Source: a virus. Taken from it: a DNA stretch of 32,104 bases. Positions 128 through 29,349 of the stretch are shown here, one piece after another (position 1 is the stretch's first letter; each line of letters begins with the position of its first letter). Position numbers and translations under genes: made by a program. Where the stretch lies: the IMG/VR virus record IMGVR_UViG_3300025420_000015, positions 1-32,104 of that record, one strand, 5' to 3'. Under the pieces are notes generated by a model, which was not told where the DNA came from, ran no database searches, and saw only the letters and a program-made list of their open reading frames with translations.

Positions 128-1503
128 TGTTTGAATTGTTCTATAGAATTTATCAAAGATCCGATAAAAGGAATGTTACTAAGATTTTCCTTCATCCAAT
201 CATACATCATTGAAATACCATCCGTGACAAAATTAAATCCACTATCTACTGTCGATCTTATATCTGATGCTGTAGCTTTTGCGTTATCATCATCCATACC
301 AAAAGCACTTAATATAGAATCAATGGATGGAATACAATCACCCAAACGTTTAAAACCTTCTTTATAATTTCCTCCAGAAAAAAGACCAATAGCATCAACT
401 AACGGACCAATAACTGGAAGGTCTTTTACTTTTTCTCCTATCCATTTACCAAAATCTTTAAGATACCCCATTATGATCAACCCCTTTCCTTTTCCACCGC
501 CAGAAGGAGTTCCACCAGCTTTTACATCTAAAAACATATTGAGTGCGTCTATCGCATACGAAAGCACTGTTCCTAATCCTGGAACAGCCAAATTAACACT
601 ATTTGCTAATGCTGATAGCAAATCCAATATACCACCAACAATATCACCTTGCTTAAATCTAGAAATCGCAAATCCCATACTGATTATCCCACCAAGAACA
701 GGAACCCCTTTAATACTTTTTGCTAAAAATCCTGCTACTTTACCGAAAATAGTTTTCAAAACCCCCTTTCCTGCTGATTTTTCCAACACAACAGCACCTT
801 CCTTCGCAACACCACCACCAAAAAGACCCTTTAATCCACTAAATGCTTTACCAAAAATTCCCTTTACGGATTTACCAATAGCACCAAAAATTTTAGCAGG
901 AAACTTCATAAAAGATTTGATATTCTTTAAAAATGTAGTTGCTGCCTTTTCCATCAATTTCAAACCACCTTGTATCCCAACTCGACTAACAAGTTTCAAC
1001 AATCCTTTAAACGGACCATCGGTTTCTAATCCCTTAACCAACGCAAAAATACCACCAGCAAGCAACGCAAGACCACCCAAAAATGCCATACCCCCCCCTC
1101 CACCTTTATCCGGTTCTTTATCCGGTTCTTTATCAGGAATTTTTTTACTAACAAAAGAAGGCAACACATCCTTCAATTCATGTAATCCTTCCTGTGTAAA
1201 TCCTCCAATTGTAACAACCTTTGGCTTATCATCAGTATCTGTAATAGTCTTAGTTTCTTTATTTACATTATTCGCAGTTTTACCAATTCCAATATCACTA
1301 AATAACTTACTTAAGGTATTTTTATCTTCTATATTATTATTTTTTGTAGAATTTGTTGTTGGAGTATTGTCTTTAATTTTAAGCGCAGCAACCTTACTTT
1401 CAATAGTTTTTGAAAGTTTATCCACAAATGTCTTACCAATCCCTTCAAAAAAAGAGTTTGGTAAAATTTTTGTAATGTCTATTGGTTGTGCTGCTGTTGC
1501 CAT
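1..1503 (-). CDS. Tail tape-measure-like structural protein, 3' end beyond window
   Basis: Starts at ATG 1503 and reads open for 501 codons to the window edge, so the C-terminus is missing. The N-terminus (about 1-125) is polar and ends in a DKEP repeat and five glycines. From about 130 on it is a run of hydrophobic, Gly/Ala/Lys-rich amphipathic stretches such as GGLALLAGGIFALVKGL. Related units recur (KGVPVLGGII, KDLPVIGPLV, SNIPFIGSLI), each followed by a Gly-Asn/Asp turn. This composition and the last place in a tail operon (sheath, tube, baseplate, then this) fit a tape-measure or tail-core protein, but I recognise no diagnostic motif. The visible 3' part contains a 127-bp perfect direct repeat with an 82-codon period. 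A TAAATA element lies at 1523-1528. A baseplate or fibre-associated role is the alternative. Confidence 0.6.
   Translation of the reverse strand, partial: MATAAQPIDITKILPNSFFEGIGKTFVDKLSKTIESKVAALKIKDNTPTTNSTKNNNIEDKNTLSKLFSDIGIGKTANNVNKETKTITDTDDKPKVVTIGGFTQEGLHELKDVLPSFVSKKIPDKEPDKEPDKGGGGGMAFLGGLALLAGGIFALVKGLETDGPFKGLLKLVSRVGIQGGLKLMEKAATTFLKNIKSFMKFPAKIFGAIGKSVKGIFGKAFSGLKGLFGGGVAKEGAVVLEKSAGKGVLKTIFGKVAGFLAKSIKGVPVLGGIISMGFAISRFKQGDIVGGILDLLSALANSVNLAVPGLGTVLSYAIDALNMFLDVKAGGTPSGGGKGKGLIIMGYLKDFGKWIGEKVKDLPVIGPLVDAIGLFSGGNYKEGFKRLGDCIPSIDSILSAFGMDDDNAKATASDIRSTVDSGFNFVTDGISMMYDWMKENLSNIPFIGSLINSIEQFKQGNYKEGFKRLGDCIPSIDSILSAFGMDDDNAKATASDIRSTV
247..373 (-). repeat. Direct repeat copy B (127 bp)
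   Basis: Second copy of the 127-bp repeat, identical base for base to 1-127. The DNA between the copies (128-246) does not match the DNA following copy B (374-492), except for weak protein-level similarity (IPFIGSLIN versus LPVIGPLVD). Only part of the 82-residue module has been homogenised or recently duplicated. Confidence 0.95.
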
Positions 1504-1530
1504 AATAAATAGGTATTACTATTATTTATT

Positions 1531-2007
1531 ATGGATTTAATGAAATATAACAAAATTAGAACATTCTTAATAAATATTAAAAATATGAACAATTTTGATG
1601 AATTATATCTAGAAATCTTAAATAAAATATCGTCACCAAAAATAATCACTACATATAAGGGCTTTGAAGGGAAAATCGACCCAACACAATACAATTCAAA
1701 AGAAAATATTATATATGTTAAACCTTCTTATAACCAGAAAAGTGATCCAGAAGGATGGATGGTTCATGAATATTCTCATGCGGATTCAAACGCAAAAGGA
1801 ATTAAAGATGATAATAAACAATATCCCACAAACAATATTGAAATTTTGGCGTATACAAAACAATTCAAATGGTTAAAAGAAACGGGAAAATGTAGAAAAT
1901 TCAAAGATTTGAAAGATGTTAAAAAATTCCCCACATTAGCACAAAAATTCACAAGATATGATGGAGAATACGAACCAATACTAAAGAAATGTTGGGATAA
2001 TGCATAA
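1531..2007 (+). CDS. Small HExxH zinc-metalloprotease-like protein
   Basis: The only plus-strand gene outside the insertion sequence; 158 residues from ATG 1531. Residues 79-83 read HEYSH, a match to the HExxH zinc-binding motif, within GWMVHEYSHAD. A possible third ligand is E104 in NNIEILAYTKQF, 21 residues after the second histidine, an arrangement typical of small gluzincin-type folds. The sequence ends in a Lys/Phe-rich stretch with KKCWDNA at the C-terminus. I see no signal peptide. Other possible starts are ATG 1540 and ATG 1585, the latter preceded by an A-rich stretch. It is divergent from the tape-measure-like gene and convergent with the gene at 2053-2508, sharing a hairpin terminator with it. 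Peptidase activity is inferred from the motif only, and the substrate is unknown. Confidence 0.65.
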   Translation: MDLMKYNKIRTFLINIKNMNNFDELYLEILNKISSPKIITTYKGFEGKIDPTQYNSKENIIYVKPSYNQKSDPEGWMVHEYSHADSNAKGIKDDNKQYPTNNIEILAYTKQFKWLKETGKCRKFKDLKDVKKFPTLAQKFTRYDGEYEPILKKCWDNA

Positions 2008-2009
2008 AC

Positions 2010-2046
2010 GAACAATGCCAATAATATTTGATTATTGGCATTGTTC
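2010..2046. terminator. Bidirectional hairpin terminator
   Basis: Perfect 16-bp inverted repeat (2010-2025 with 2031-2046) around a 5-base loop. It lies exactly between the convergent stop codons at 2007 (plus) and 2053 (minus), with A/T-rich sequence on both sides, so it can serve both strands. Confidence 0.85.
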
Positions 2047-2052
2047 AAATTT

Positions 2053-2508
2053 CTATTTTATAAGAAACCTTAAAGTTCTTATGTTTTCATCATAAGTATA
2101 ATTTATATAATCAGGATGAATGCGACGTAATCCATCAGCAATATAATAAACATATAATCCCTTACTATCTTTATCGGATTTTATAAAACTACTCATTTCT
2201 TCTTCCGTATTAAAATGTTTACTCATAACTTCATGAATTTTACCACCATAACTTACGATTGGACTTATAATATAACCCGATATGAAATCTTTATATTCTG
2301 ATATATCATATCTTATGTTGAAGAATTCAGTTTTGTGTGACGAATTTATTTTTACCCATTCGTCATAATCGTAAATGATTCCGGCATCTGGAATTCCTTC
2401 TCCTTGTTCAAACTTCAATTCTCCCATTTCTTTTCCTAGTTCATAAATCACTGGAACTATATTTTCTGTCATATTATTTGTTGTTGTCATATTATTTGTT
2501 GTTGTCAT
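2053..2508 (-). CDS. Hypothetical protein with a duplicated translation start
   Basis: A 151-residue acidic protein that I do not recognise. It opens with MTTTNN twice and then MTEN, because an 18-bp unit containing the start codon is tandemly duplicated. ATGs at 2508, 2490 and 2472 are all in frame. The body is a mixed alpha/beta-looking domain with many aromatic residues (YDYDEWVKI, GLYVYYIADGLRRIHPDYINYTYDENIRTLRFLIK). There are no cysteines, membrane segments or nucleotide-binding motifs. TATAAATA (2516-2523) lies 7 bases upstream of the first ATG. It sits between a baseplate-hub paralogue and the tape-measure-like gene, so a virion or tail-assembly role is possible from position alone. 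Confidence 0.6.
   Translation of the reverse strand: MTTTNNMTTTNNMTENIVPVIYELGKEMGELKFEQGEGIPDAGIIYDYDEWVKINSSHKTEFFNIRYDISEYKDFISGYIISPIVSYGGKIHEVMSKHFNTEEEMSSFIKSDKDSKGLYVYYIADGLRRIHPDYINYTYDENIRTLRFLIK
2473..2508 (-). repeat. Tandem 18-bp repeat carrying the start codon
   Basis: Two perfect copies (2491-2508 and 2473-2490) of a unit reading ATGACAACAACAAATAAT on the minus strand, followed by a third ATGACA. Each copy ends in AATAAT directly before the next ATG, so each copy supplies its own A-rich leader and start codon. Confidence 0.9.
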
Positions 2509-2590
2509 ATTTTAATATTTATAATTTCTATATTTTCTGGAATTTGTTTCATATGTTTGTATTTTATCATATTTCCATAGTTTGTCAACT

Positions 2591-3445
2591 TTAATCATTG
2601 AAAAAAGAAGCATCCATCGGAAGTTCCCTTTTCAATTGCGCCACAACATCATTACCTTCCACATCCTTTTTAACAACTTCCACACTTATACTTGTCAATT
2701 TTTCAGTAAGTGTCTTAAAATTTTCCATATATTTCAGAATCTTATTAATTATCGTCGTTGGAAATTTTGACACTATTGAAATTCTAGTTTTAAAATCTAA
2801 TGTATCAAAATCAATTATCTGACCATCCGTAACCGATAAAGTCTTAATATATTTAGTAACTTCATTTATAAAAGCATTACCTACCAATTCCCTTAAATCT
2901 TCTGATGTCTTAAGTTCAGATTTCGCAAGCTTTCCAACCTCATTCTCTAACTTATTTTCTGTTTTAATATTAGGAACGCCACAGACTATCTTATATGGAG
3001 GAACATCATCAATAATCAGTGTCTCAATCGCTCCCAAACCCTCTACAAAGCGTTCTAATACATCCGACAGGTCAACCACACCATCCTCTACAATCAACCC
3101 ATTTTCTTCAATTTCTTCCTTAGTATATTTAAAATTATAATCTTTAGATATACTGTTTATTCGTAATGTAACAAAATAAATAATCTTATCTAATGCTGTT
3201 AAATCATCAACTTTAAATGTTTCAGTAGTTATCACATTTTCCTTCATTATTTCATTAAAAGTAAGATTGAAAATAGATGTCTGTAATGGAGAATCAACTA
3301 AACTTTTATACAACCGCTTTAATTGATCTGTGTTTAAAATTTTTGAAGGGATATTAACACCCAAAGAAGGAGCAAAAAATTCAAATGTGATTGTATCGTT
3401 AATTGTATCTAACGAACTTAAAATATTCTTAACATCTTGATTCAT
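2591..3445 (-). CDS. Baseplate-hub protein, T4 gp26/gp51-like, paralogue 2
   Basis: A 284-residue soluble protein from ATG 3445, preceded by TAAATA at 3454-3459. It resembles the T4-type baseplate hub family in overall build: an N-terminal beta-rich stretch (TITFEFFAPSLGVNIPSKILN), a helical middle containing LDKIIYFVTLRINSIS, and a C-terminal helix pair (ISIVSKFPTTIINKILKYM) ending in LPMDASFF. The adjacent protein at 3472-4413 has the same succession (FFILLFNLRSISLG, FSKLPVIVTTKLLK, IPIDVNVY), so the two look like diverged tandem duplicates. This one ends right after the LPMDASFF-type motif, while the other continues about 70 residues further. Family assignment is by pattern and by position after the tail tube genes. 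Confidence 0.55.
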   Translation of the reverse strand: MNQDVKNILSSLDTINDTITFEFFAPSLGVNIPSKILNTDQLKRLYKSLVDSPLQTSIFNLTFNEIMKENVITTETFKVDDLTALDKIIYFVTLRINSISKDYNFKYTKEEIEENGLIVEDGVVDLSDVLERFVEGLGAIETLIIDDVPPYKIVCGVPNIKTENKLENEVGKLAKSELKTSEDLRELVGNAFINEVTKYIKTLSVTDGQIIDFDTLDFKTRISIVSKFPTTIINKILKYMENFKTLTEKLTSISVEVVKKDVEGNDVVAQLKRELPMDASFFND

Positions 3446-3471
3446 AATTATTATATTTAATAGCCATATTG

Positions 3472-4413
3472 TTATAAATCAACATAAGAATCGTCATTTA
3501 TCGCAGTTTGTTCTCCTATATTTGAAGATTCTTGATTTGAATTTTCTTTCTGTATTGACATTTCCAACCGTTTTACAAATATTTGAAATTCTCCTGGTGT
3601 GCAATTTTCTACATATTCCGCAGACATATTAACATTCTTCGATAAATTATATATGTTATCATATAGAGATAATAAATCATCCAAAAATAAAATCTTGACC
3701 AAAAATGAAAGATTATATACATTAACGTCTATTGGAATATTATACGTATCTGATATCATTTTATTGTTTAATATATCTAAAATATTAACACTCTTAATAT
3801 TTAATATTTGTTGTTGTGTAGTTTTTAACAATTTGGTCGTTACTATTACTGGCAACTTACTAAATATTGCGCTTCTTTCTTCTATTGAAAGGTTTTTATT
3901 TATTTCTAAGTTTAAAGTTTTGAATTTGGAACTTTTAATAAACTTTATAAAGATTATACCATCCAACCCAATGTCTGTCAAATTTAAATACGATAAAAGT
4001 TCGAAAATCGTTGGAAGTCGCAATTCAATTTCAAAATCTCCTGCTTGTATATACTTTGTTTGTATAAATGATTTCTTCACATCCTCAAACTTAGATATTA
4101 TTTTATTGATATCTAATGTAATTTTAGTTGGCATATCATTTTGAGTAAGCGTTAAATTTAAAACATTACCCAAACTAATACTACGTAAATTGAATAATAA
4201 TATAAAAAAGTCTATAAAATCCAATTCATCTAAATCTTGTGCTGAAAGTTCTACACGTTCTTGTAATATATTCCTAAGATTTAAAAATATAATCTTTGGA
4301 TTTGGAACATCACCAAATAAACTTTTCAGTATTATTTTATAGTCCTTCACAAGAAGTTCTGAATATTGAATTTCTTTACCAAAAATATCAACAGTATTTA
4401 AAAATTTTGACAT
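3472..4413 (-). CDS. Baseplate-hub protein, T4 gp26/gp51-like, paralogue 1
   Basis: A 313-residue protein from ATG 4413. The start is preceded by a TAAATT variant of the upstream element at 4425-4430. It has a long helical and beta core rich in Leu/Ile/Lys, with no transmembrane pattern: DELDFIDFFILLFNLRSISLGNVLNLTL, then a central GDFEIELRLPTIFELLSYL, then FSKLPVIVTTKLLKTTQQQI and IPIDVNVYNLSFLVKILFLDDL. These blocks fit T4-like baseplate hub or hub-chaperone proteins and are shared in order with the downstream gene. The Ser/Asn/Glu-rich C-terminal tail (QKENSNQESSNIGEQ) is probably disordered. Only 6 bp separate it from the upstream tail gene, so it is likely co-transcribed and possibly translationally coupled. 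Confidence 0.55.
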   Translation of the reverse strand: MSKFLNTVDIFGKEIQYSELLVKDYKIILKSLFGDVPNPKIIFLNLRNILQERVELSAQDLDELDFIDFFILLFNLRSISLGNVLNLTLTQNDMPTKITLDINKIISKFEDVKKSFIQTKYIQAGDFEIELRLPTIFELLSYLNLTDIGLDGIIFIKFIKSSKFKTLNLEINKNLSIEERSAIFSKLPVIVTTKLLKTTQQQILNIKSVNILDILNNKMISDTYNIPIDVNVYNLSFLVKILFLDDLLSLYDNIYNLSKNVNMSAEYVENCTPGEFQIFVKRLEMSIQKENSNQESSNIGEQTAINDDSYVDL

Positions 4414-4419
4414 TTACTA

Positions 4420-5229
4420 TTACAAATTTATCCCTGCGTTTATCGATAATCCATTTCTTGTCGTTAATCCCACATTTATAGAGTTTTCATAACTTGCGGA
4501 TTCACTAGGAAAAAATGGAGGATTCCCATCAAATTTACCGTTTGCAATAATATCAGCACTGGAATCTATGTTGTAATAATTATATGCAAATGTAGAGATT
4601 CTAATATGTGGTGCGGATGCTGCTGTGTAATTTTGTTCTTCTCCAGATATACTTACTGGACATACACCATAAAAACTATATTTTTGTCGAATATGTGGTG
4701 CAATTCCAAGAGAGGTCACACCTAATTTATAAACATATATATTAGTTCTATAATCCAAATCACTACCTTTAGGATATGCAATCATACCTAAATGTGAAGT
4801 CACTATCGTCCAAGGTCGCAACACATTTTCCGTAAAACTAACATTATTATCAACAAATGTTATTCTTAACGTATCAAAATCCTGTCTACCACCACCTACG
4901 GTAGTTCGTATCAATCCTCCATACTGTGTCCCAACTGGATTTGGAGTAAACCCATCACTTGGTAATGTAACTGCTTGCGCAAACATACACCCTTTGTTAA
5001 ATTGAAATACGGGCATTGTTGCAGTTTTTAATGCATTCTGTATATTCCACCCCTGTCCTCCAAATTTCGGTTCGTATTTCGCAACATTACCAATTACACT
5101 AGGAAATTCATCAAAATATATAATCCATTGTGCTCCTTTTGGTAACGCGCCAGCAGGTTTCGACAATACTTGACTGAAAAAGTATCCTATTTGTTCGGAA
5201 TTTTGACTGTAATATGCGGATTCTGCCAT
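4420..5229 (-). CDS. Tail tube or tube-initiator-like structural protein
   Basis: A 269-residue protein beginning at ATG 5229. It is Gly/Tyr/Asn-rich and beta-rich, without cysteine clusters or enzymatic motifs. The middle contains LRPWTIVTSHLGMIAYPKGSDLDYRTNIYVYKLG and a later YSFYGVCPVSISGEEQNYT, an arrangement typical of tube-fold proteins of contractile tails (gp19, gp48, gp54 in T4). It directly follows the gp19-like tube gene with a 32-bp gap and precedes the hub paralogues, so a baseplate tube-initiator role is the best guess. I cannot tell gp48 from gp54 by reading. The upstream sequence has AATAAGTAG in place of the TAAATA motif seen before most neighbours. Confidence 0.5.
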   Translation of the reverse strand: MAESAYYSQNSEQIGYFFSQVLSKPAGALPKGAQWIIYFDEFPSVIGNVAKYEPKFGGQGWNIQNALKTATMPVFQFNKGCMFAQAVTLPSDGFTPNPVGTQYGGLIRTTVGGGRQDFDTLRITFVDNNVSFTENVLRPWTIVTSHLGMIAYPKGSDLDYRTNIYVYKLGVTSLGIAPHIRQKYSFYGVCPVSISGEEQNYTAASAPHIRISTFAYNYYNIDSSADIIANGKFDGNPPFFPSESASYENSINVGLTTRNGLSINAGINL

Positions 5230-5830: not shown

Positions 5831-7951
5831 TTATAAATTTTTATTACTGGTATTAGAATTCCACTCAAAAACATAATTACCACAATCATAAATCTTTAAA
5901 TATCCCGCATTTTTCATGTTTTCCTCCGCTGTTTTATTTGGATCGAAATTACTCCCCAATCTTTTTGCCAACATATGCTTCTGAAACCCTACTCTATGTA
6001 ACAACCTATCTCTTATTCTTGATGTAAAATACCAAAAATTAGGTGGAGAAATTCTAAGTAAATCGAATCCCAATTTATTATAAAGCCCCCCATTACTATA
6101 TCGCCTGTTCGCATAACTTATTATTTTTTGTGGATTATATGATCTTATAAAATATGAAAACAATTTAGACGCACCACCAACAACACAAGTATTCTGTTTG
6201 CAGCAATATCTCATCAATTCTAAAGTTGGTTTTGATCCAGTAATTTTTCTACTACCAAATGTCATAACTGATATTAATTCATCAGTTTTCTTATCAAACA
6301 GCCCTATTTTATATTTTGAATTATCCTTCCCTTGTATATGATGCTCTATTAAAAACATATTCTTTGTATTATTATCAATATCTTTCACATAACAATTCCT
6401 AGCGAATATTTTATTTTTATATATTCCTAATTTACTAAGTATTATAGATTTCACCAATTCTTTTGAAGTGTTCCATTCATTTTCAAATATGTGAATAAGT
6501 TGTATCCCCAATTTTTCGCACATTTTAGTTTTATTTATATGATATTTATTTTCTTTGTGTTCGCTACTATGCCAATATAATCCATCAAATTCTATTGCCA
6601 CCCATTTTTCTGGAATGTATATATCAAGTTCTAATGGTGGTATTATTCTTTTACTGCTCGTTATGATATCAAATGTTGTAAATGATTTTAACATATCACT
6701 TATTTCAATTTCTGGTTTGGATATTGATATTTTACTACATCTTGGACATCTAACATCAAATGCAACCTCTCTGGTATACACAAATTCACAAATACTGCAT
6801 TTAAAATCTATCTCTCCAGTAGATATATAATGAGATTTATCAGTTAACATTTTTTCCGTTCTATTCTGCATTCTATCTTCCCAAATATCAAAACTCTTAT
6901 CTCGAATAGATATTATTGCATTTTTTCGATTTCTTTCTACATTTACCTTTGCTGAACAATTTACAGAACAACATTCAGAATATCCTTTATCAAATGTATT
7001 AAATCTGACAATTTTATCATTACAATAACTACATATCGGGATACTATCAAGATTATTGTGTAGTAAATATATCCGTTCATTAAATTTTATATTTTTTCTT
7101 TGTATGTTTCTTGTATGATATATGATACTCTTATACAATCGTAAATCTAAATTGAATATACTTGTATAAAATGAGTGTGATGTAACTTTATCAACCCATC
7201 CTTTTATACCTTTTATTGTATCTTCCTTAGATAGAAATTCACAACTTTCTGATAATTTAGCTGCTTTATTTTTTTTATGCTCTATTTGAATGCAATTAAA
7301 ATTTTTACATTTCCCATAGCCTTTTTGTATGGATAAAAATGGTAATATTTCATTACAATTTTCACACTTACACTTTTTTGTATTATGTATCATCAAATAT
7401 ATACCTTCACTAAAATCTTCAGAATATTTTTTAATTACAAAATTATACCACTTTGGATGTTTATATATAAAATGCACCTTTAAATCGTTTAATGATCTAT
7501 TAGAAATATACGATAGAATATCTTTTTCAACTACAGTAGAAATATCCGTTTTTAAAGCATCATCGATTAACCCCCTTTGAATATCTGAAGAACATATATT
7601 TAATCCCTTTCTAGTATTCCCTCTTCTAATTAACATTTCAGTGTCTTTATGTGTGCATTTCTTCGAGCAATATTTATTGTATTCCCATTTTCTATTTACA
7701 CCAAATATTGGAATAACATTACCGCACGATTTACACAACGGAAGGGTTTTCATATCACATACATAATGATACAACAATTGTGATTTATTAATAATATCTA
7801 AATTATTATACTTCCCAAAATTTATAATATCATTCTCTAATGTTATATATTTTTTATATAACTCTTTTAAAAAAAATTGTTTATGTATTTTTCTATACTC
7901 GATAACTTGTTGTTTATCTAAAACCTCATATAATTCAGTTTTCATATACAT
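5831..7951 (-). CDS. Free-standing homing endonuclease, EDxHD (Vsr-like) type, with zinc ribbons
   Basis: A 706-residue protein inserted between the sheath and tube genes. It has four zinc-ribbon-like modules: C73/C76 with C95/C99, C196/C199 with C215/C220, C307/C310 with C328/C332, and C385/C388 with C402/C405. A very-short-patch-repair-like nuclease domain follows at about 412-500, with acidic residues in KPEIEISDM and LELDIYIP and the block VAIEFDGLYWHSSEH, characteristic of EDxHD homing enzymes. A further domain of about 200 residues (505-700: MFLIEHHIQGKDN, LMRYCCKQNTCVVGGASKL, YNKLGFDLLRISPPNFWYF) is not needed for nuclease activity. It looks like a GNAT-type fold to me, at low confidence. 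No TAAATA element precedes the ATG, unlike the neighbouring tail genes, consistent with late insertion. Likely function: cutting intruder-free alleles at or near the sheath/tube junction. Confidence 0.85.
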   Translation of the reverse strand: MYMKTELYEVLDKQQVIEYRKIHKQFFLKELYKKYITLENDIINFGKYNNLDIINKSQLLYHYVCDMKTLPLCKSCGNVIPIFGVNRKWEYNKYCSKKCTHKDTEMLIRRGNTRKGLNICSSDIQRGLIDDALKTDISTVVEKDILSYISNRSLNDLKVHFIYKHPKWYNFVIKKYSEDFSEGIYLMIHNTKKCKCENCNEILPFLSIQKGYGKCKNFNCIQIEHKKNKAAKLSESCEFLSKEDTIKGIKGWVDKVTSHSFYTSIFNLDLRLYKSIIYHTRNIQRKNIKFNERIYLLHNNLDSIPICSYCNDKIVRFNTFDKGYSECCSVNCSAKVNVERNRKNAIISIRDKSFDIWEDRMQNRTEKMLTDKSHYISTGEIDFKCSICEFVYTREVAFDVRCPRCSKISISKPEIEISDMLKSFTTFDIITSSKRIIPPLELDIYIPEKWVAIEFDGLYWHSSEHKENKYHINKTKMCEKLGIQLIHIFENEWNTSKELVKSIILSKLGIYKNKIFARNCYVKDIDNNTKNMFLIEHHIQGKDNSKYKIGLFDKKTDELISVMTFGSRKITGSKPTLELMRYCCKQNTCVVGGASKLFSYFIRSYNPQKIISYANRRYSNGGLYNKLGFDLLRISPPNFWYFTSRIRDRLLHRVGFQKHMLAKRLGSNFDPNKTAEENMKNAGYLKIYDCGNYVFEWNSNTSNKNL

Positions 7952-10200: not shown

Positions 10201-10779
10201 CTATAACAGAGAAGGTGTCAATAAATTAAAGTTGACCCTACTAAATTGGAAGGTAACAGTAGATTCTATCCAGTCATTAGTTCTATTATCATACGTAATT
10301 CCACCTAATCCAGTAATAAAAGCATTTACATATACCCAAGATGCAATTTTTTGATTATATTCATCTAACGCATAAACAGAAAAAGAAGTTTGATATTCGG
10401 GTGTCATACTAGTTTTTGATGTTGTAGGACTTCCACCATAAATACTTCCATCCGCAGTATTCAAAACATTCAACCATTGCCATAACACATAATAGTTCAC
10501 AAATTTATTGTCTACCACAAAATTTATTGTAATTGGTTCATAATTTGGGCGAGTGTAGCTACTAATATTTGATACCTGCCCACCAAAAGGTAAAGCAATA
10601 GAAGGAACTGCAATCGTTGGAACTACTGTACCATACACACTAAAATTTAAAGTATCTAATCCATTCGGAATAGACAAATTAGGCGTATTCTTCATAACAA
10701 TAGGTAAATCCAATACAAGTAAAAATTTGTCTTTACTTGCCCTATTAAGCACCGATTGTTCAGTTGGATTTACGTTCAT
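10201..10779 (-). CDS. Tail tube-like protein (gp19 fold), upstream of sheath
   Basis: A 192-residue protein from ATG 10779. It shows the tube-fold pattern: ASKDKFLLVLDLP (first strand), IAVPSIALPFGGQVSNISSYTRPNYEPITINFVVDNKFVNYYVLWQWLNVL (loop, strand, helix), SFSVYALDEYNQKIASWVYVNAFITGLGGITYD and a final ESTVTFQFSRVNF strand. It has no obvious sequence identity with the gp19-like protein at 5262, so it is either a second tube protein or a tail-completion/tube-cap protein using the same fold. It lies 15 bp after the terminase stop and 42 bp before the sheath start. TAAATA is at 10786-10791. Confidence 0.65.
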   Translation of the reverse strand: MNVNPTEQSVLNRASKDKFLLVLDLPIVMKNTPNLSIPNGLDTLNFSVYGTVVPTIAVPSIALPFGGQVSNISSYTRPNYEPITINFVVDNKFVNYYVLWQWLNVLNTADGSIYGGSPTTSKTSMTPEYQTSFSVYALDEYNQKIASWVYVNAFITGLGGITYDNRTNDWIESTVTFQFSRVNFNLLTPSLL

Positions 10780-10785
10780 TTGTAT

Positions 10786-10791
10786 TATTTA
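10786..10791 (-). promoter_or_regulatory. TAAATA element before tube-like gene
   Basis: GTTAAATAATACAAATG on the minus strand, 6 bases before the start codon. The copy overlaps the stop region of the terminase C-half gene. Confidence 0.4.
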
Positions 10792-10794
10792 ACT

Positions 10795-13068
10795 TTATGG
10801 TTGATATATAGTAAACCCAAGTTCCATTAATCCATCAATATCCAAATCATCCGTATGTAAATCATTACCACCCATTATTGGTTGATATTTTTGTGGGGTA
10901 TTTGGTTTAGGATAATTTGATGGAACTATTATTTCTCCTGTCGTGAGGTCTTTTAATGAATATAACGTATCATCAGTATATTCCATATCAGTTCTCGATA
11001 CTTTCAATGGTTTATTCTGATCATCAAATTCATCTACAGTAAAGTATTGTTGGCATACATCAGTTTCTAATACAAATAATGCCCAAACTAATGCCATAAC
11101 AAAATCATCTCTGTGTTTATCCGTCTTTTTGCGATACGTTCCATTCGGATATTTCACGAAGGTTTCAAATTCTGATATTGTATCATCATCATTTATTTTA
11201 ACCGCATGTAAGAAATTAATCCAATACCTCAAATTACTAACAGCATTAAAACGTAAATTATTGTGACTAAAAATTCCCAAATGTCTTGTATTTTTTCTTC
11301 CATCAGTGCTAGAAGTTTTGCTATAACTTACAATTTTATCATAATAATGGGTGTGAACTAATGCATCCAATATCTGCGCACCACAATTATTTCTTTCTAT
11401 CAATAAAGGCGGATTTCCCCAAGATGCTGCCAAATTCACCAATCTATTCGCAAAATGATATGGTTCTAACACATTTGTTCCATATACCGCAACTTGTTTA
11501 ATTTCTGTCAAATCCGTAATATCTAAAACTTGAGCGGTTGATGCAGCCCTTCCAATACCTTCCCCAACATCAACACCAATAACATATATCCTATCTTTAT
11601 CAGGCATCTCATACACTTTATATGTAGAATCTGATGATGCCCATAAAGTAGGTTTCTTATTGGTTTTAAACTCCTCTATAACCTCCGCACCCACTGCACC
11701 ATCCGAAGAGTCTAAGAATTTATTTCCAAATTCCTGCTCAAATGCTGCTTCTGACCCCAAAGCTGAAATCATACCCGCTTTCCATTTTTCATTTCTACCA
11801 GGAACATCCCACCAATCAATCCTTTCAGTCTTCCAATCATTCTTCCCCTTTTCTGCATCACTATAAATTTCGTAAAATTTATTAAAAACCCCATTTGGCG
11901 TGCTCACCATGAAAATTTTAGTTTTTTTACCGGATGATACTGTAGGAATTACAGACTTCCAAAATTCCTCCATCAAATGTGTATTATGACTTAATACATC
12001 ATTCGTATAATATTTATTTCCTTTTTTAACATCAACTAAATCATAAACAAAATCTTCACTGTCTTTTGTTATATATTCTACTTTTGTTACTCCTGTTTTA
12101 GTTTTTATATATTTATTTACTGCGTTTTTTGCAAATATTTTCCTTCCTGATTTAGAAATAAAACAATGATTAGGAGATACTACTATACTATTACCACCTT
12201 CAAAACACACCTTTATTAATTTGCGGCGGGAATACTCAGCAACACCACTGAAATCCGACCAACCATTATGCGTTAATACCTCCCATTCTTCATTTTCTTC
12301 GTATCTAATTAAATCTGCGTTCATCTGCACAGAAGTTTTGAAAAACAAATCAGCAATTTCTACAATTTTTGTTTCGCCCGTTATTTTATTTCTCAAATCA
12401 ACTTTAGTATTTCTATTGACACAATCAATAAATGCTGCTTCATCGATCACCAAAATACTTGCTGTATCCCCGCGAGCAGCAGTAGATGTAGTAGTTGATA
12501 TACCAATACTACTACCGTTCGCAAAAACACAACCAGTTTTTCCCCATTCCTTAATACCAGGTTTTAAATAGTTGGGTAATAATTCATATGCAAGTCGTAT
12601 CTTTTTAAAAATATTAATTGCAGTGTTTTCTTTATTTGCGACAATCATTACTCGTTGATCATCCAAAAAACATGTATTCCATAATGCATATACCGTAGTA
12701 AGTGTTGTATTATGACTTAGAATACCATTAGAAAAATATGTATGTTTATCGGATTTTAAAGAAACGTCATACATGTTTTCTGGTGGTAACTCTAATTTTT
12801 CCACACTTCTTACAATCTCAACACCAGTTTCTGTAATAATTTTATCTCCAACTTCTAAATCATAAACATATATTTCTTCTCCATTTTCGCCAATTACTAT
12901 ATGCTCATCCGCACATTCTAAAAAATAATTATCCGTCTCTAATTTCCAAACATCATAAGGAATCGTCTTATGAACGGCTTCTATATCTTCCCATCCACTA
13001 TCCGTCCAAATTTCGTAATTATCTACACTACGAGTATCTATAATCTTTTCATCACTAATATCAATCAT
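10795..13068 (-). CDS. 17: Large terminase C-terminal half (gp17) with intein C fragment and a second internal intein
   Basis: A 757-residue precursor. Residues 1-120 are the C-terminal half of a split intein, ending YFSNGILSHN; T121 begins the C-extein TTLTTVYALW, which completes Walker A (SRQVGK/TT) when joined to the protein at 14385-14822. ATPase sequence continues to the Walker B region VIDEAAFID (207-215). It is then interrupted by a 147-residue mini-intein (C216-N362) and resumes with THLMEEFWKSVIPT and the coupling motif MVSTPNG. The RNase H-like nuclease follows: IGVDVGEG (first acidic residue), LLIERNNCG, and KHRDDFVMALVWALF. Summing the exteins gives 114+95+395 = 604 residues, close to T4 gp17 (610). 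Function: ATP-driven headful packaging motor and genome-cutting nuclease at the portal. It needs one trans and one cis splicing event to be active. Confidence 0.93.
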   Translation of the reverse strand: MIDISDEKIIDTRSVDNYEIWTDSGWEDIEAVHKTIPYDVWKLETDNYFLECADEHIVIGENGEEIYVYDLEVGDKIITETGVEIVRSVEKLELPPENMYDVSLKSDKHTYFSNGILSHNTTLTTVYALWNTCFLDDQRVMIVANKENTAINIFKKIRLAYELLPNYLKPGIKEWGKTGCVFANGSSIGISTTTSTAARGDTASILVIDEAAFIDCVNRNTKVDLRNKITGETKIVEIADLFFKTSVQMNADLIRYEENEEWEVLTHNGWSDFSGVAEYSRRKLIKVCFEGGNSIVVSPNHCFISKSGRKIFAKNAVNKYIKTKTGVTKVEYITKDSEDFVYDLVDVKKGNKYYTNDVLSHNTHLMEEFWKSVIPTVSSGKKTKIFMVSTPNGVFNKFYEIYSDAEKGKNDWKTERIDWWDVPGRNEKWKAGMISALGSEAAFEQEFGNKFLDSSDGAVGAEVIEEFKTNKKPTLWASSDSTYKVYEMPDKDRIYVIGVDVGEGIGRAASTAQVLDITDLTEIKQVAVYGTNVLEPYHFANRLVNLAASWGNPPLLIERNNCGAQILDALVHTHYYDKIVSYSKTSSTDGRKNTRHLGIFSHNNLRFNAVSNLRYWINFLHAVKINDDDTISEFETFVKYPNGTYRKKTDKHRDDFVMALVWALFVLETDVCQQYFTVDEFDDQNKPLKVSRTDMEYTDDTLYSLKDLTTGEIIVPSNYPKPNTPQKYQPIMGGNDLHTDDLDIDGLMELGFTIYQP
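11983..12423 (-). other. Mini-intein in terminase Walker B region
   Basis: 147 residues (C216-N362 of the C-half precursor), starting CVNRNTKVDL and ending YYTNDVLSHN before Thr. Block A (TKVDLRNKITGETKIVEI), a block-B-like SPNHCFI and the terminal F/G blocks (DFVYDLVDVKKGNKYYTNDVLSHN) are visible. No LAGLIDADG or other endonuclease domain is present. The segment LTHNGWSDFSGVAEYSRRKLIKVCFE parallels WTDSGWEDIEAVHKTIPYDVWKLE in the split intein, so the two share ancestry. Confidence 0.9.
12709..13068 (-). other. Split intein C fragment (IntC) of terminase
   Basis: 120 residues from the start Met to N120, with terminal SHN then Thr as the +1 nucleophile. It contains the histidine block (ECADEHIVIG), LEVGDKIITE, and a block F/G region (MYDVSLKSDKHTYFSNGILSHN). 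It is unusually long for an IntC, because the break lies near the intein's N-terminus, as in atypical split inteins such as AceL-TerL. Confidence 0.9.
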
Positions 13069-13079
13069 TATAATTTTAT

Positions 13080-14357
13080 TTAATCATTATGAATAAAATC
13101 TAAACAATCTTGTAATATCTTTTGCTTGTCTTTATAATACTCCAATTCTTTAACATTAAAAACTTTACATTTTAATGTTTTTACTATTTCATCTTCCCGC
13201 ATTTGATCATTTTCTACTCTATAATTAACTTGTTTATTTGCAATACTATGCCAATACGCACCATTAAATTCTATGACTTTGTTTACATCTTTAATATAAA
13301 AATCTAATGATCTACTAGTTTTATGTGTCTTTACTTTATATTCGTGATTCTTTCCGTCCGTTGATATATTACCGTCATATATAGTCGCAAAATAAATTTC
13401 TTTGTATTCGGATTTTATATTATCGTATATATTCCAAAATAACTCTTGTGATACCTTGGAATAATTTTGTTTTGGAAATGATGTCAACCATTTTTCTGTT
13501 ATCCCCTTTCGAATTTCTATTGCTTTGGTTTTGTTGCATCCACTTCGCTTCATAATAGCATCTATAGAATTTGTAGTCTGTCGTTCTCTTAACTTCTGTA
13601 TGGCTTCTTCTTCAGTAAACCCCATCTTAGTCCAATATCCCTTTTGTGTAGAATTACATTGCGTGTCTTGTATGGTTTTACTAATCGCTTCACCACAGTC
13701 ACTTCTGTTATTATATTTGTTATGATAATTCACACCACAACTAGTATTATAACAAAATTTATTATATCCCTCCCAAATACTATTAAATTTCATTAAATTG
13801 CCACACCATAAACATTTTCCCAATTCATTAGTTTTTTGTATATGTTTATGATAATATGATTCTTCTGAATCATGAACGTCTTTAATATGTTTCGATAAAT
13901 CTTCTTTTCTATAATATGAAATTCCACATTCTTTACATACAATATTAAAATTTTCTGGTAAAAGCTTTCCACTTTTTATTTTTTTCTGTTGATTACTATG
14001 AGTAATACAACACGCTCCAACTGCAATCATACTAAATGGTATTAAATTTTTACATGAAACCAAACAGCATTTAGTTTTCGATAATACATATTTATTATAA
14101 ATTTCTTCTTTGTTGTGTGTCGTCTTGTTAAGAGATACTGATATATCCTTCCATCCTTCAAAATAAGAATTCAATTCTTCAACAAAAATATAAGAATGTA
14201 ATAATTCTTTGGTTTTGTTTATATCTCTGTTATTTTGTTTATACAATTTTCTAACTAACGACCCCGCAAATAATCCATAGGTTTTATGTTGAAATTCCGT
14301 TAATTTTAATCCAGTTACTTTACAAATATAGGTTTTGTCCATACCTATATTTATCAT
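13080..14357 (-). CDS. Homing endonuclease, EDxHD type, between the two terminase halves
   Basis: 425 residues from ATG 14357. ATG 14342 (MDKTYICKVTG) is also likely, because a TAAATA element (14348-14353) sits 5 bases before it. The N-terminal half has Cys/His clusters, including a zinc-finger-like block with CKECGISYYRKEDLSKHIKDVHD (C2H2 spacing) and CLWCGN...CYNTSC. The C-terminal nuclease domain (about 295-420) has SQELFWNIYDNI, SRSLDFYIKDVNKVIEFNGAYWHS and a late KVFNVKELEYY. This is the Vsr-like/EDxHD signature also seen at 5831-7951. It occupies the whole gap between the terminase halves, 27 bp after one and 11 bp before the other. Its position at the intein break suggests that it propagates the split-intein allele. 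Confidence 0.88.
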   Translation of the reverse strand: MINIGMDKTYICKVTGLKLTEFQHKTYGLFAGSLVRKLYKQNNRDINKTKELLHSYIFVEELNSYFEGWKDISVSLNKTTHNKEEIYNKYVLSKTKCCLVSCKNLIPFSMIAVGACCITHSNQQKKIKSGKLLPENFNIVCKECGISYYRKEDLSKHIKDVHDSEESYYHKHIQKTNELGKCLWCGNLMKFNSIWEGYNKFCYNTSCGVNYHNKYNNRSDCGEAISKTIQDTQCNSTQKGYWTKMGFTEEEAIQKLRERQTTNSIDAIMKRSGCNKTKAIEIRKGITEKWLTSFPKQNYSKVSQELFWNIYDNIKSEYKEIYFATIYDGNISTDGKNHEYKVKTHKTSRSLDFYIKDVNKVIEFNGAYWHSIANKQVNYRVENDQMREDEIVKTLKCKVFNVKELEYYKDKQKILQDCLDFIHND

Positions 14358-14384
14358 AAATTAAGTAAATGTCCAACTTGAAAT

Positions 14385-14822
14385 TCATCCAACACGTTTA
14401 TAAAAATTTTCTATCGTAACCTCTTCAGTTTCAAGTGTTTGTTTATTCCGAATAGTTAACATAACACCACATTTAAGGCATTTACCTACTTGTCTTGATG
14501 CTAAGACCGTAACGAACCGGTTCTTCGCTAGGCTTTTTAATACTCTTTTTTGAGCAGGGTAGAGTTCTATTTTTTCTTTACCTCTGTCGATATTTACGAT
14601 ATAGAAATGTTTTTCAGCGAAGTGTGTGATATCTTCCTTACATTTTTTCATTTCCTTTACCATTGCAGGAGTGAACGCAAATTGTGCATTCTCTCTTGGT
14701 AATTTTTTATCTCCTCTATAGTATTGTCTATCACCTATAGGGTTTTCGTTAATTACATCATCTTCAATCTCTTTAACATCCTCTAGATAAGAATCTTCTG
14801 GACATGTGTTATCATCACTCAT
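14385..14822 (-). CDS. 17: Large terminase N-terminal half (gp17) fused to intein N fragment
   Basis: 145 residues. The first 114 are terminase: an acidic N-terminus, then FTPAMVKEMKKCKEDITHFAEKHFYIVNIDRGKEKIELYPAQKRVLKSL, the adenine-binding Q-motif region of T4-type large terminases, then FVTVLASRQVGK, the first part of Walker A. At C115 terminase sequence stops and an intein begins, running 31 residues to the stop after IENFYKRVG. Trans-splicing with the product of 10795-13068 would give SRQVGKTTLTT, an intact Walker A. This half alone cannot bind ATP. TAAATA is at 14831-14836. It is separated from its partner by a homing endonuclease gene. Confidence 0.92.
   Translation of the reverse strand: MSDDNTCPEDSYLEDVKEIEDDVINENPIGDRQYYRGDKKLPRENAQFAFTPAMVKEMKKCKEDITHFAEKHFYIVNIDRGKEKIELYPAQKRVLKSLAKNRFVTVLASRQVGKCLKCGVMLTIRNKQTLETEEVTIENFYKRVG
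14388..14480 (-). other. Split intein N fragment (IntN) of terminase
   Basis: 31 residues, C115-G145, beginning CLKCGVMLTI and ending IENFYKRVG at the stop codon. It holds the block A Cys nucleophile and little else. The short length and the IE-x-x-YKR ending recall the IntN of the AceL-TerL split intein (about 25 residues), which interrupts the same protein. Confidence 0.88.
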
Positions 14823-14830
14823 ATTAGTTT

Positions 14831-14836
14831 TATTTA
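14831..14836 (-). promoter_or_regulatory. TAAATA element before terminase N-half gene
   Basis: GTTAAATAAAACTAATATG on the minus strand, 8 bases before the ATG. The flanking TTAGTTAAATAAAACTAA also forms a short dyad. Confidence 0.4.
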
Positions 14837-14843
14837 ACTAATA

Positions 14844-15248
14844 TTAGATATCTTCTTCTAGATTTCCACCTTCTCCCATACCGCCTTGTTCTGGATTAAA
14901 GATATTAAACATTGTGCAGCGCAAGTTTTCTAGTAATGCATCTCTATCTTGAGCGTTCGCAGCATGCATCATAAAAACCTTATCACCGTGTAGATCATAT
15001 CCGATAGTCATATATGCTTTTAAGTATTCTGTGGTGATGTTATTTAATTGTGCGATATCGTCACTTCTATCTTTTTCTATTGAGACTTTATCATAGAATT
15101 GGATAAAAGCTTGTTTGATTAAGCTTTGCACATCAGCATCTACGGTAGGGGGAACATTTTCAGGAACTATTTTTTTAGTTTCTGTTTTTTTACGACTAAT
15201 CTTTTTTTTCCCTGTCATTTTATTTTTATTTGGGTCATTAGCAGACAT
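14844..15248 (-). CDS. Hypothetical protein, positional candidate for small terminase
   Basis: 134 residues from ATG 15248. The N-terminus is highly basic (MTGKKKISRKKTETKK), the middle (about 40-115) looks helical (DVQSLIKQAFIQFYDKV, NNITTEYLKAYMTIGYDL), and the tail is Gly-rich and acidic (EQGGMGEGGNLEEDI). It lies directly upstream of the large terminase gene, where T4 encodes its small subunit gp16 (164 residues, a coiled-coil ring protein). The size and the charged ends would allow that role, but I see no recognisable gp16 motif, so the assignment is positional only. TAAATA lies at 15261-15266, 12 bases before the ATG. Confidence 0.6.
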   Translation of the reverse strand: MSANDPNKNKMTGKKKISRKKTETKKIVPENVPPTVDADVQSLIKQAFIQFYDKVSIEKDRSDDIAQLNNITTEYLKAYMTIGYDLHGDKVFMMHAANAQDRDALLENLRCTMFNIFNPEQGGMGEGGNLEEDI

Positions 15249-15259
15249 AGCATCTACTA

Positions 15260-15601
15260 CTATTTATTCGTAATTGTATTTTTAGTATACTCCGCAGCTT
15301 TATTATTAATGCCATATTTTACCAGATGTTCCACTAAAATTTCAAACGACAATGTTTTAATTTTTAGTCGGGTTGGTAGATATTGGCCTCCGTCTGACAA
15401 TTCCAAATATGATTCATTATCTCCGAAATTTGGATCACCGGAGAAGCAAGTACAAAAAATAGAACTTACTTTAGGATCGATAACAATAGTCCAAGACCGT
15501 GCATCCGCTTTACTATAATCATCAAATAATTTATATGCGTAATATCCGCTATCTCTGAGTCTTTTTAAGAAGTATCCTAATGTAGTTAATTTATTAGCCA
15601 T
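15260..15601 (-). CDS. Hypothetical protein between clamp and terminase genes
   Basis: 113 residues from ATG 15601, with a TAAATT variant element 13 bases upstream. The N-terminus is helical (TLGYFLKRLRDSGYYAYKLFDDYS). A compact beta-rich centre follows (ARSWTIVIDPKVSSIFCTCFSGD) and then a charged helical C-terminus (FEILVEHLVKYGINNKAAEYTKN). There are no enzymatic motifs or membrane segments. It ends 11 bp before the next gene. I do not recognise the family. Its position between the clamp and packaging genes may reflect a late-gene switch or packaging role, which is inference only. Confidence 0.6.
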   Translation of the reverse strand: MANKLTTLGYFLKRLRDSGYYAYKLFDDYSKADARSWTIVIDPKVSSIFCTCFSGDPNFGDNESYLELSDGGQYLPTRLKIKTLSFEILVEHLVKYGINNKAAEYTKNTITNK

Positions 15602-22804: not shown

Positions 22805-25800
22805 TTAATCAGAAAATAAATCAAATAAGTTTGTAGTAGTTTGATTGCACACATCAGGCATCATCCAATTCACTCCATCATATAATCTTTCTATTGCTGG
22901 TAATATCTGTTTTTCAAACATCTTTTCTTTATCTACAACTAGTTTTGTAAATTCTTTAGGGTATTCACTAGGATAAGCAATGGCATCTAAACCATATACA
23001 TTCTTCTTGAGATATACCCATTTAACCTTTTGATTTGAATTTATTCTCTCGTATTTATCTTCGATTTTTAATAATTTCAAGAGTAAATTATATGCAATTG
23101 CTGCTTTTACATGCACTGGTGTTCCTGATTCGAATTTTGTCAGTGTTGAAGTCTTCGCATATTTTTCATAATTGTTTACTGAAATACGAAACGCCATATC
23201 ATCCAAACTTAATTGTTTAAAATCATCATACACCTTTATATACACTTCATTTGTAGACTTTAATGTTTTCAAAGATAATAAAGTATTCATTATCCGTTTG
23301 ATAAATTCTTTAACTTCCTTAGATATTGTAGATTTCGCAACTTCAACTCCAACATATTTAAATTCATCAGTTTTCTTACCTTCTTTATCATTGATGTGTA
23401 ATATATAACGTTTTTTCATCAAAAATACTCCTGCATCCGCAATAACTTCTCTTTTAAATACGAATCTTGGATCAGTAGTATGCAATTCTCGTTTTGCCCA
23501 CACATTAATCTCATCGTTTAATACATTGTCAATCTCATCAATAACAATAGCCGCATCTTTTGCGATATCACCATTATCTTCTAATAGTTTATAATTTTTA
23601 ATATCTAGTATTGGTGCAACAGTCAAGTAAATTGAATTATGGACTAATATATCATTTGCAAAATATGTTTGTTCCACTGGATTTTCTGTATCCATTTCAA
23701 AATCGTATACATATTCATCATCGAAAACATCAAGCTGTTCTACTTTAAATTTATCTGTAATTATAGTTTTAAGTATGCTCGTTATATTATCTGATATATA
23801 CAATATTTTATCACTTTCTGCAATTTCTTTAGGTGATATTCTTGTTAGTTTATCATTCCTAACAACTACCATATCATGATCTTCCGTTATGACCACACTT
23901 TTACCGTCTACCGTAATCTTATATCGTTTCTTGGTTACTTTATGCCGAATTATGTGTTTAATTTTACCATAAACTGGTATATTATTTTTATATGTTAAAA
24001 TTTCTATACCATTAGTATGTTTCATTTCATGTCCAGATGATGTTTTTAGAATGATATTATCATTATTCTCCCAAAGTTTTTCTATTGTATCCTCACCATT
24101 CTTGTGTCGAATTATACTATCAAAAGCTACTGAGTCCGTATCACCGTACACCACAATACTTTTACCTGTCACTCCGTATTTTTCCTTTGCGTGGCGATCT
24201 ACAATATTTGCAGCCTCTTGTCCAACTGCTCTACCCGTTGCGGTGACTGATCTTGCAGCATCAATATCCGCAAAAATACAGTAATTATTCGCAAACGCCC
24301 CATATAAAGAATTAAGAAAAATCTTTACAGTATATTGCAAAGTGTCAAGATAAATAAGTTCATATTCATCTTCGTCGGTTTTCATTTTTTTCTTATCTAT
24401 TTTTTTATATTTTGCTTTTGCATCTACTCGTTTTGTATAAAGATCGTCAACTAATTTTGGAATGATGCCTTTATTTTTTTGTGAATATATTACATTAGCA
24501 TTTGATATACACATCTGTTCACTTATCAAAAACTTTTTCAATTTTGATATAGAGAGTGTATAAGATTTTCCTGTTACCAATACCAATTCCGCAACATCAT
24601 CAGGATTATTAAAATCAGGATTGTTTATAAGTTTTCCCACTTTTGTCTCTGGTGATATGTTTAATGTAATAATGGTGTTTGGGTATAGACTATTAGCATC
24701 GAAGCTTACAATGGCTTCCTGGAGTCCTGTAATAGGCTCTCTGACGAATCCACCAGGAAGTTCACCATTAAGATTAGGAGGGAATGTCGGAATGGTTAAT
24801 CCTTCCTTTTTAGCTTGAATTGCAATAGCACCAACAACCAATGTTACTTTACCCAAAGCACTTTCAAAGTTCGAACAACCTTGGTATGAAAGCAATCTTG
24901 CGATTTGAATATATTTTAATTTCTCCTCAAGTTTAACAAGCAATGCAACATCTTGAATATTATACTCAACAAAATTTTTCCAATCTGTGTCTGCTAATGT
25001 CGAAAGATTTGTGGCATTTATTTCCAATTTCCCTTCGTTCAATTCTACTTCTCCAATATAATTTAATTTATACGATTCTCGTTTATCTCTTGCGAAGGTT
25101 TTATATAATAACATATAGTCCAATATACTCACGCCTTGGATATGCCATTTTATAAATTGTTGTCCAAAGTCATTTGTTGCATTAGATGAATATAGTTTTC
25201 TGAATGGTGAAAGTCTTTTTGCTGCTGCTTCACCCATAACATTAGTAATACGATTGATTATATATGGAACGTCAAAACCATCACAATTATGGGTTTTTAT
25301 ACCATTACACACAAAATAATGAGTGGACGTTTCAATATCTGCCATTTCTGTGGGGGTTTCGGTTTTATATATTTTTCTTATTTTTACTAAAATATTATCT
25401 TCCTTGATAAAGTATTTAATTTTATCACTAGAATTATTACATTTTTCAAAAAAACATACCCCTCCATCAATTTTTCTATTTGGGTGTATAATATCAAGAC
25501 CACGTAGAAAACTTTCATTTTCTAATATAAAAGGTATCCTATTTAATGTTTTAGTTTTTGTAGATATTACATTATTCCACAATAATAATTGTTGTAAATT
25601 TGATAAGTTTTCTTCTATGCTATTACAGACGCCTAACGTTTTTTGGATATTAGAAAAACATCCATCGCCATCAACCAAACCTGAATAAAAACTTTTAAAT
25701 TGTTCATAAGATAGCATCGATATTGGGGTTATTGATATTTTTTTCTTGTTGTTTATATCGTAAATAAAAGGCAATAATATCCCAATTTTATTATTAACCG

Positions 25801-29335: not shown

Positions 29336-29349
29336 AAATATAATTATAC

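What the first reader, a model, noticed from the sequence alone, without database searches (positions are those of the whole stretch)
10795..14822. Large terminase split inside Walker A by an atypical split intein, with a homing endonuclease gene in the gap
N-extein ends VLASRQVGK; C-extein begins TTLTTVYALW. Joined they give SRQVGKTT, a Walker A motif that neither gene encodes alone. The N gene ends in a 31-residue IntN starting with Cys. The C gene starts with a 120-residue IntC ending SHN before Thr. The intervening gene encodes an EDxHD endonuclease. This matches the 'fractured gene' arrangement and the short-IntN class (AceL-TerL). The phage has no packaging ATPase without trans-splicing, and very short IntN fragments are rare.
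Basis: partly seen in the sequence, partly recalled or inferred. Interest (0 to 1): 0.85.

Follow-up and report, generated by a model that had tools for sequence, protein, structure and literature searches.

The report
Phage packaging motor split by intein
This phage makes its DNA-packaging motor as two separate proteins that almost certainly have to stitch themselves together with a split intein, with a homing-nuclease gene lying between them; the arrangement is real but turns out to be common in related environmental phages, so it is a good example of a known kind of thing and not a one-off.

Summary
Confirmed. On the minus strand the T4-type large terminase (TerL) is broken between the Walker A lysine and threonine: a 145-aa gene (114-aa N-extein ending SRQVGK, 31-aa IntN), a 425-aa endonuclease gene, and a 757-aa gene starting with a 120-aa IntC ending SHN|TT. 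IntN and IntC match complementary parts of contiguous inteins found at the same site in relatives. The modelled IntC is an intein fold (best PDB match VidaL). The endonuclease resembles I-Bth0305I (EDxHD type). No other TerL exists in the matching 128-kb contig.

Not rare: up to 504 IMG/VR loci encode relatives. Of the best 80, most are split with IntN of about 31-60 aa. The TerL K|T site is a documented intein site. Hence a new member of a known kind.

More surprising are the relatives: Vibrio phage VmeM-32 has its halves 79 kb apart; Salicola phage SCTP-2 encodes TerL in three distant genes; about six diverged lineages carry the endonuclease out of frame inside a contiguous intein whose own frame stays stop-free (0 stops against 15-21 expected).

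The parts
14385..14822 (-). TerL-N gene, 145 aa (N-extein + IntN)
   Evidence: ORF; T4 gp17 5.5e-12; phrog_5989 terminase 1.7e-17
14481..14822 (-). N-extein, 114 aa, ends SRQVGK (Walker A up to Lys)
   Evidence: aligned to gp17 SRQLGK
14388..14480 (-). IntN, 31 aa, begins Cys1
   Evidence: 37.8 bits against IntN profile versus 11.1 for best of 2000 shuffles
13080..14357 (-). homing endonuclease gene, 425 aa; zinc-finger-like N part, EDxHD/Vsr-like nuclease C part
   Evidence: profile hit to 3r3p I-Bth0305I 4.5e-4; Foldseek rank 1 3r3p, prob 1.00 but E 0.078; relatives lie between TerL halves
10795..13068 (-). TerL-C gene, 757 aa (IntC + C-extein + second intein + rest of TerL)
   Evidence: gp17 8.8e-32; Terminase_6N 9.6e-8
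12709..13068 (-). IntC, 120 aa, ends SHN, followed by Thr+1
   Evidence: 131 bits to contiguous-intein profile positions 44-159; AF2 pLDDT 90.6; VidaL TM 0.78, rmsd 1.3
12424..12708 (-). C-extein part 1, 95 aa, TTLTT...VIDEAAFID (rest of Walker A to Walker B)
   Evidence: gp17 alignment
11983..12423 (-). second, contiguous mini-intein, 147 aa, CVNRNT...VLSHN, +1 Thr, just after Walker B
   Evidence: CatC 6dsl 1.3e-6, gp41-1 4.2e-5; Pfam Intein_splicing 3.5e-5, below that model's cut-off
10798..11982 (-). C-extein part 2, 395 aa: end of ATPase and nuclease domain
   Evidence: gp17 alignment

Best explanation
The phage's only large terminase is made as two polypeptides. IntN (31 aa) on the first binds IntC (120 aa) on the second and completes a class 1 intein. 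Cys1 attacks the Lys-Cys bond, the acyl group passes to Thr+1, Asn120 cyclises, and the exteins are joined as SRQVGK-TT, restoring Walker A. A second, contiguous intein after Walker B excises itself in cis. The result is a 604-aa T4-type TerL. The endonuclease gene between the halves is a separately translated homing endonuclease that would cut intein-less terL alleles at the Walker A codons, so that repair copies in the whole IntN-HEG-IntC block. Shown here: anatomy, homology, intact catalytic residues, fold of IntC, recurrence, absence of another TerL in the contig. Inferred: fragment association, splicing, DNA cleavage and homing.
For: Both halves are complementary parts of one gp17-like TerL. 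IntN and IntC align to positions 1-30 and 44-159 of a profile of contiguous inteins at the same site; artificially joined they score 139.8 bits over the whole model. Cys1, block B His56, His119-Asn120 and Thr+1 are present; His56 is invariant and His119/Asn120 nearly so in 40 relatives. IntC is predicted as an intein fold, VidaL top hit. The N/HEG/C order recurs in diverged phages, including a 462-kb uncultured phage with a 37-39% identical HEG, and dozens of IMG/VR contigs. Serratia phage Kevin and Salmonella phage Maynard have a contiguous intein at the same site. Only the two halves are found in the 128-kb contig. HEG: I-Bth0305I-like, key residues kept.
Against: No splicing, expression or cleavage data. 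The 128-kb contig's completeness is unknown, so an intact terL elsewhere is not fully excluded. The window IntN has Gly-Val where most relatives have Asp-Thr or Asn-Thr, so activity could be reduced. The intact fold could not be modelled because joined halves may not be submitted. HEG model quality is modest (pLDDT 72; Foldseek E 0.078).
Confidence: 0.9

Rival explanations
1. Genes in pieces without ligation: the two chains associate and work as a two-chain TerL, and the intein parts only hold them together or are decayed (as reported for a split ribonucleotide reductase with a homing endonuclease, cited in PMC10448857).
For: No splicing data; the block A Asp-Thr is missing in IntN.
Against: Walker A would be cut between Lys and Thr with about 150 intein residues at the active site; all splice-junction residues are kept here and across relatives.
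Confidence: 0.05
2. RNA-level joining: a group I intron with an endonuclease ORF, and the extra codons are intronic.
For: Spliced terL transcripts are known in Vibrio phage ICP1 (PMC10448857).
Against: No Rfam intron in 10600-15300 at E<1; the single sub-threshold hit is to an unrelated family. The extra codons encode conserved intein parts on both sides.
Confidence: 0.01
3. The pair is inactive or cleavage-only, the contig is a defective or mixed assembly, and another phage supplies TerL.
For: Metagenomic origin; no host or plaque.
Against: Identical locus in three other IMG/VR records; all three ORFs open; same design in cultured phages Atu_ph07, SCTP-2 and VmeM-32.
Confidence: 0.04

Closest known systems
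[quoted passage not shown] 2009, cited in PMC7090010 and PMC11766414; the paper itself is not held)
   Same: Two host-gene halves each with part of a split intein; independent endonuclease gene of Vsr/EDxHD type between them (features of the 2009 family recalled from memory).
   Different: Host gene TerL at Walker A; very short IntN; a second, contiguous intein in the same protein.
VidaL split intein (PDB 6vgv)
   Same: Best sequence (4e-4) and fold match (TM 0.78, rmsd 1.3) for IntC; both have C-A-x-x-H at block B.
   Different: VidaL IntN is 16 aa, split after beta-strand 2 (PMC13014065); here 31 aa and judged to be split after the first helix.
AceL-TerL / GOS-TerL / Cat atypical split inteins
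   Same: TerL host; short IntN (25-37 aa); split after the first helix (PMC13014065, PMC11766414).
   Different: Cat-type inteins appear to sit at Walker B DE|C with +1 Cys (inferred); here Walker A K|T with +1 Thr. The window's second, contiguous intein is the CatC-like one (1.3e-6).
Contiguous TerL P-loop inteins (mycobacteriophage TerL1-a, PMC5050341; Salmonella phage Maynard; Serratia phage Kevin)
   Same: Insertion between invariant Lys and Thr; Kevin-type inteins are homologous to this IntC.
   Different: Those are contiguous mini-inteins (about 159 aa in Maynard and Kevin); this one is split with an independent HEG.
I-Bth0305I (PDB 3r3p), EDxHD homing endonuclease
   Same: Best homing-endonuclease match by profile and top match by fold for the nuclease part.
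   Different: Here with a long zinc-finger-like N part and associated with a split intein.

Membership tests
Naturally split class 1 intein | Catalytic residues: Cys1, block B His, His-Asn at the end, C/S/T at +1 | tested here: met
   Cys1, His56, His119-Asn120, Thr+1. Block B Thr replaced by an invariant Ala, as in VidaL
Naturally split class 1 intein | Two fragments are complementary parts of one HINT domain | tested here: met
   Positions 1-30 and 44-159 of the contiguous profile; IntC intein fold
Naturally split class 1 intein | Trans-splicing activity | not testable with these tools
   needs co-expression or in vitro assay
Fractured gene (Dassa 2009) | Host-gene halves flank a separate endonuclease gene | tested here: met
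Fractured gene (Dassa 2009) | No intact copy of the host gene | tested here: inconclusive
   Only the two halves in the 128-kb contig; contig completeness unknown
AceL-TerL / GOS-TerL / Cat | Insertion at TerL Walker B DE|C with Cys+1 (site inferred from the CatC match) | tested here: not met
   Insertion is SRQVGK|TT with Thr+1; the Walker B split intein of phage phiS matches CatC at 1.3e-13
AceL-TerL / GOS-TerL / Cat | Short IntN split after the first helix (S2) | tested here: met
   31 aa, includes the TIENFYKRV segment judged to be the helix; IntN alignment; S2 definition from PMC13014065
VidaL-type | Sequence and fold proximity; C-A-x-x-H at block B | tested here: met
VidaL-type | 16-aa IntN split after beta 2 (S1) | tested here: not met
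   IntN is 31 aa; VidaL values from PMC13014065
EDxHD / I-Bth0305I-like homing endonuclease | Vsr-like nuclease fold with conserved E, D, H | tested here: met
   3r3p by profile (4.5e-4) and fold (prob 1.00, E 0.078); E339, D352, E363, H370 invariant in 21 relatives
EDxHD / I-Bth0305I-like homing endonuclease | Cleavage of intein-less terL and homing | not testable with these tools
   needs cleavage assay and phage cross
Group I intron | Intron RNA structure in the gap | tested here: not met
   No Rfam intron match

The most novel reading that the evidence does not exclude
The window element belongs to a large family of TerL P-loop inteins that changes gene architecture repeatedly: fractured with an endonuclease gene between the halves (as here), split without it, halves dispersed tens of kilobases apart, TerL in three genes, re-joined contiguous, and a dual-coding state in which a complete endonuclease gene is overprinted in an alternative frame of a contiguous intein whose own frame is kept stop-free. 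The last state would be a new way of nesting a homing endonuclease in an intein, and would place the endonuclease at the short-IntN split site, not at the usual endonuclease insertion site.
Probability: 0.55. Interest if true: 0.75.

Novelty: new member of a known kind. Interest (0 to 1): 0.45.

Why it matters
If the halves splice, an essential viral motor depends on two protein-splicing reactions, one at each nucleotide-binding motif, before any genome can be packaged. The family offers dozens of native IntN/IntC pairs with a short IntN (about 31-60 aa), mostly followed by Thr or Ser, useful as protein-labelling tools. It also offers a natural series (split with HEG, split without, dispersed, three-piece, contiguous, overprinted) for testing how split inteins arise, persist and re-join.

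Tried and rejected
Group I intron: no Rfam support. AceL-TerL allele: insertion site and +1 residue differ. Fold prediction of the joined intein: not attempted, since only unaltered window or locus proteins may be submitted; IntC alone and the HEG were modelled. MIJ3: its PolB split-intein nuclease was thought to be the HEG match, but the hit lies in MIJ3_00050 beside recA, so that link was dropped. Dassa 2009 and the GOS-TerL paper are not in the library, so their site lists could not be checked. The IntN-only score against the small contiguous profile is weak (5.7 bits); a profile of split IntN fragments settled it. The first contiguous/split classifier picked the wrong N part for L041 because of an extra TerL-like ORF. 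Only one query per viral scan, so family counts are samples and not a census.

Full report
WHAT IS THERE. On the minus strand, in order: TerL-N (14822-14385), an endonuclease gene (14357-13080) and TerL-C (13068-10795). TerL-N is a 114-aa N-extein ending SRQVGK plus a 31-aa IntN. TerL-C is a 120-aa IntC ending SHN, a 95-aa extein through Walker B, a second contiguous 147-aa intein, and 395 aa of extein. Removal of all intein parts gives 604 aa.

HOMOLOGY. Both halves match T4 gp17 in the PDB and PHROG terminases; TerL-C also matches Pfam Terminase_6N. IntC matches VidaL (4e-4) and other inteins. Intein 2 matches CatC (1.3e-6) and gp41-1.

ONE INTEIN IN TWO PIECES. A profile built from contiguous inteins at the same TerL region (Kevin, CP21 and IMG/VR loci) is matched at positions 44-159 by IntC (131 bits) and at 1-30 by IntN. 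Joined, they span the whole model at 139.8 bits. IntN alone is weak there (5.7 bits). Against 31 other IntN fragments the N gene scores 37.8 bits; the best of 2000 Cys1-keeping shuffles scores 11.1. The only other significant hit in the window is in the TerL-C frame, taken to be the start of intein 2. AlphaFold2 models IntC well (pLDDT 90.6), and Foldseek returns inteins with VidaL first (TM 0.78, rmsd 1.3).

SPLIT POSITION. Known natural short-IntN inteins split after strand 2 (VidaL) or after helix 1 (AceL, GOS) (PMC13014065). The window IntN contains the TIENFYKRV segment, which I take to be helix 1, so the position is the AceL-type one although the intein itself is closer to VidaL. This is a judgement from the alignment, not from a model of the joined intein.

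ENDONUCLEASE. The aligned family hits the I-Bth0305I catalytic domain by profile (4.5e-4). The model's top fold match is the same domain, with Vsr further down (E 0.078, so supportive only). E339, D352, E363 and H370 are invariant in 21 relatives. The N-terminal part is zinc-finger-like.

GENOME CONTEXT. The same locus is found at 100% identity in a 128-kb contig and two smaller ones. In the 128-kb contig a terminase profile finds only the two halves. Of 12 other large contigs searched, 11 showed a TerL match, and one of these (L042's) also showed an extra TerL-like fragment.

HOW COMMON. A scan with IntC plus the start of the C-extein found 504 related loci; the best 80 were kept. Where the N half lies in the locus, 69 were split (42 with a HEG in the gap) and 11 contiguous, redundancy included. 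After removing identical sequences and adding a HEG-based scan: 75 split, 15 contiguous (biased towards HEG carriers). Split and contiguous forms are interspersed on the tree (10 parsimony changes, many weak nodes), so joining or splitting probably happened repeatedly. In annotated phages, 347 records hold an IntC relative, many of them Ackermannviridae. Salmonella phage Maynard is annotated with an intein at this point, and the Lys/Thr P-loop site is described for mycobacteriophage TerL (PMC5050341). Neither the site nor a short IntN is therefore new.

STRIKING RELATIVES. Vibrio phage VmeM-32 (cultured): C half at 1102-3216 (+) with IntC and a second intein, N half with IntN at 79947-80624 (-). 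Its description (PMC6483233) does not mention an intein. Salicola phage SCTP-2: TerL in three genes at 429.4, 256.4 and 216-218 kb, two split inteins and one contiguous. Agrobacterium phage Atu_ph07: split, halves adjacent, no HEG. LR756500 (462 kb): same N-HEG-C order with a homologous HEG.

OVERPRINTED ENDONUCLEASE. In L072, L111, L136, L137-L142, L160 and L168 the TerL-intein frame runs unbroken from N-extein to C-extein, while a HEG of about 276-293 matched residues occupies another frame inside it. The TerL frame has 0 stops over the HEG against 15-21 expected after synonymous codon shuffling (0 of 5000 or 2000 shuffles). Non-overprinted relatives have up to about 70 stops in the alternative frames there. 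This was not sought and deserves its own study.

VERDICT. A real and very probably functional split-intein terminase of the fractured-gene kind. Splicing and homing are inferred. It is one of many.

Noticed in passing
L072:4762-6978, L111:4780-7650, also L136, L137-L142, L160, L168: Complete EDxHD endonuclease gene overprinted in an alternative frame inside a contiguous TerL intein; the TerL frame is stop-free against 15-21 expected stops.
   Followed up: partly
MF360958.1 (SCTP-2) 429356-429748(-), 256428-257321(+), 215993-218077(-): Large terminase encoded in three distant genes, apparently needing two trans-splicing steps plus one cis-splicing.
   Followed up: partly
KU160494.1 (VmeM-32) 1102-3216(+) and 79947-80624(-): TerL halves about 79 kb apart in a cultured phage, with a second intein in the C half.
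   Followed up: partly
window 11983-12423: Second, contiguous CatC-like intein in the same TerL, just after Walker B.
   Followed up: yes
window 22805-27367: DNA polymerase B with two apparent inteins: one LAGLIDADG-bearing (GWN|CISKNQ...GIKTHN|CDGF) and one at YGDTD|S.
   Followed up: no
window 28940-30609: IS200/IS605-type element with Y1 transposase and TnpB-like gene inside a phage contig.
   Followed up: no
window 5831-7951: 706-aa homing endonuclease (phrog_3339, 6e-116) next to the tail sheath and tail tube genes.
   Followed up: no
L033, L074, L079, L052 (TAG), L032 (TGA): TerL, intein and HEG frames interrupted by one recurring stop codon, suggesting phages with a reassigned stop.
   Followed up: no
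L013:6530-7345, L042:5293-5985, VmeM32_00108 (L012:2701-3171): Extra, degenerate TerL ATPase-like ORFs with an uninterrupted Walker A region beside split terminases.
   Followed up: no
L006 (Krischvirus phiS) 2009-5120: Coliphage TerL split at Walker B by a CatC-like split intein, with a nuclease-like extension fused behind IntN in the N gene.
   Followed up: partly
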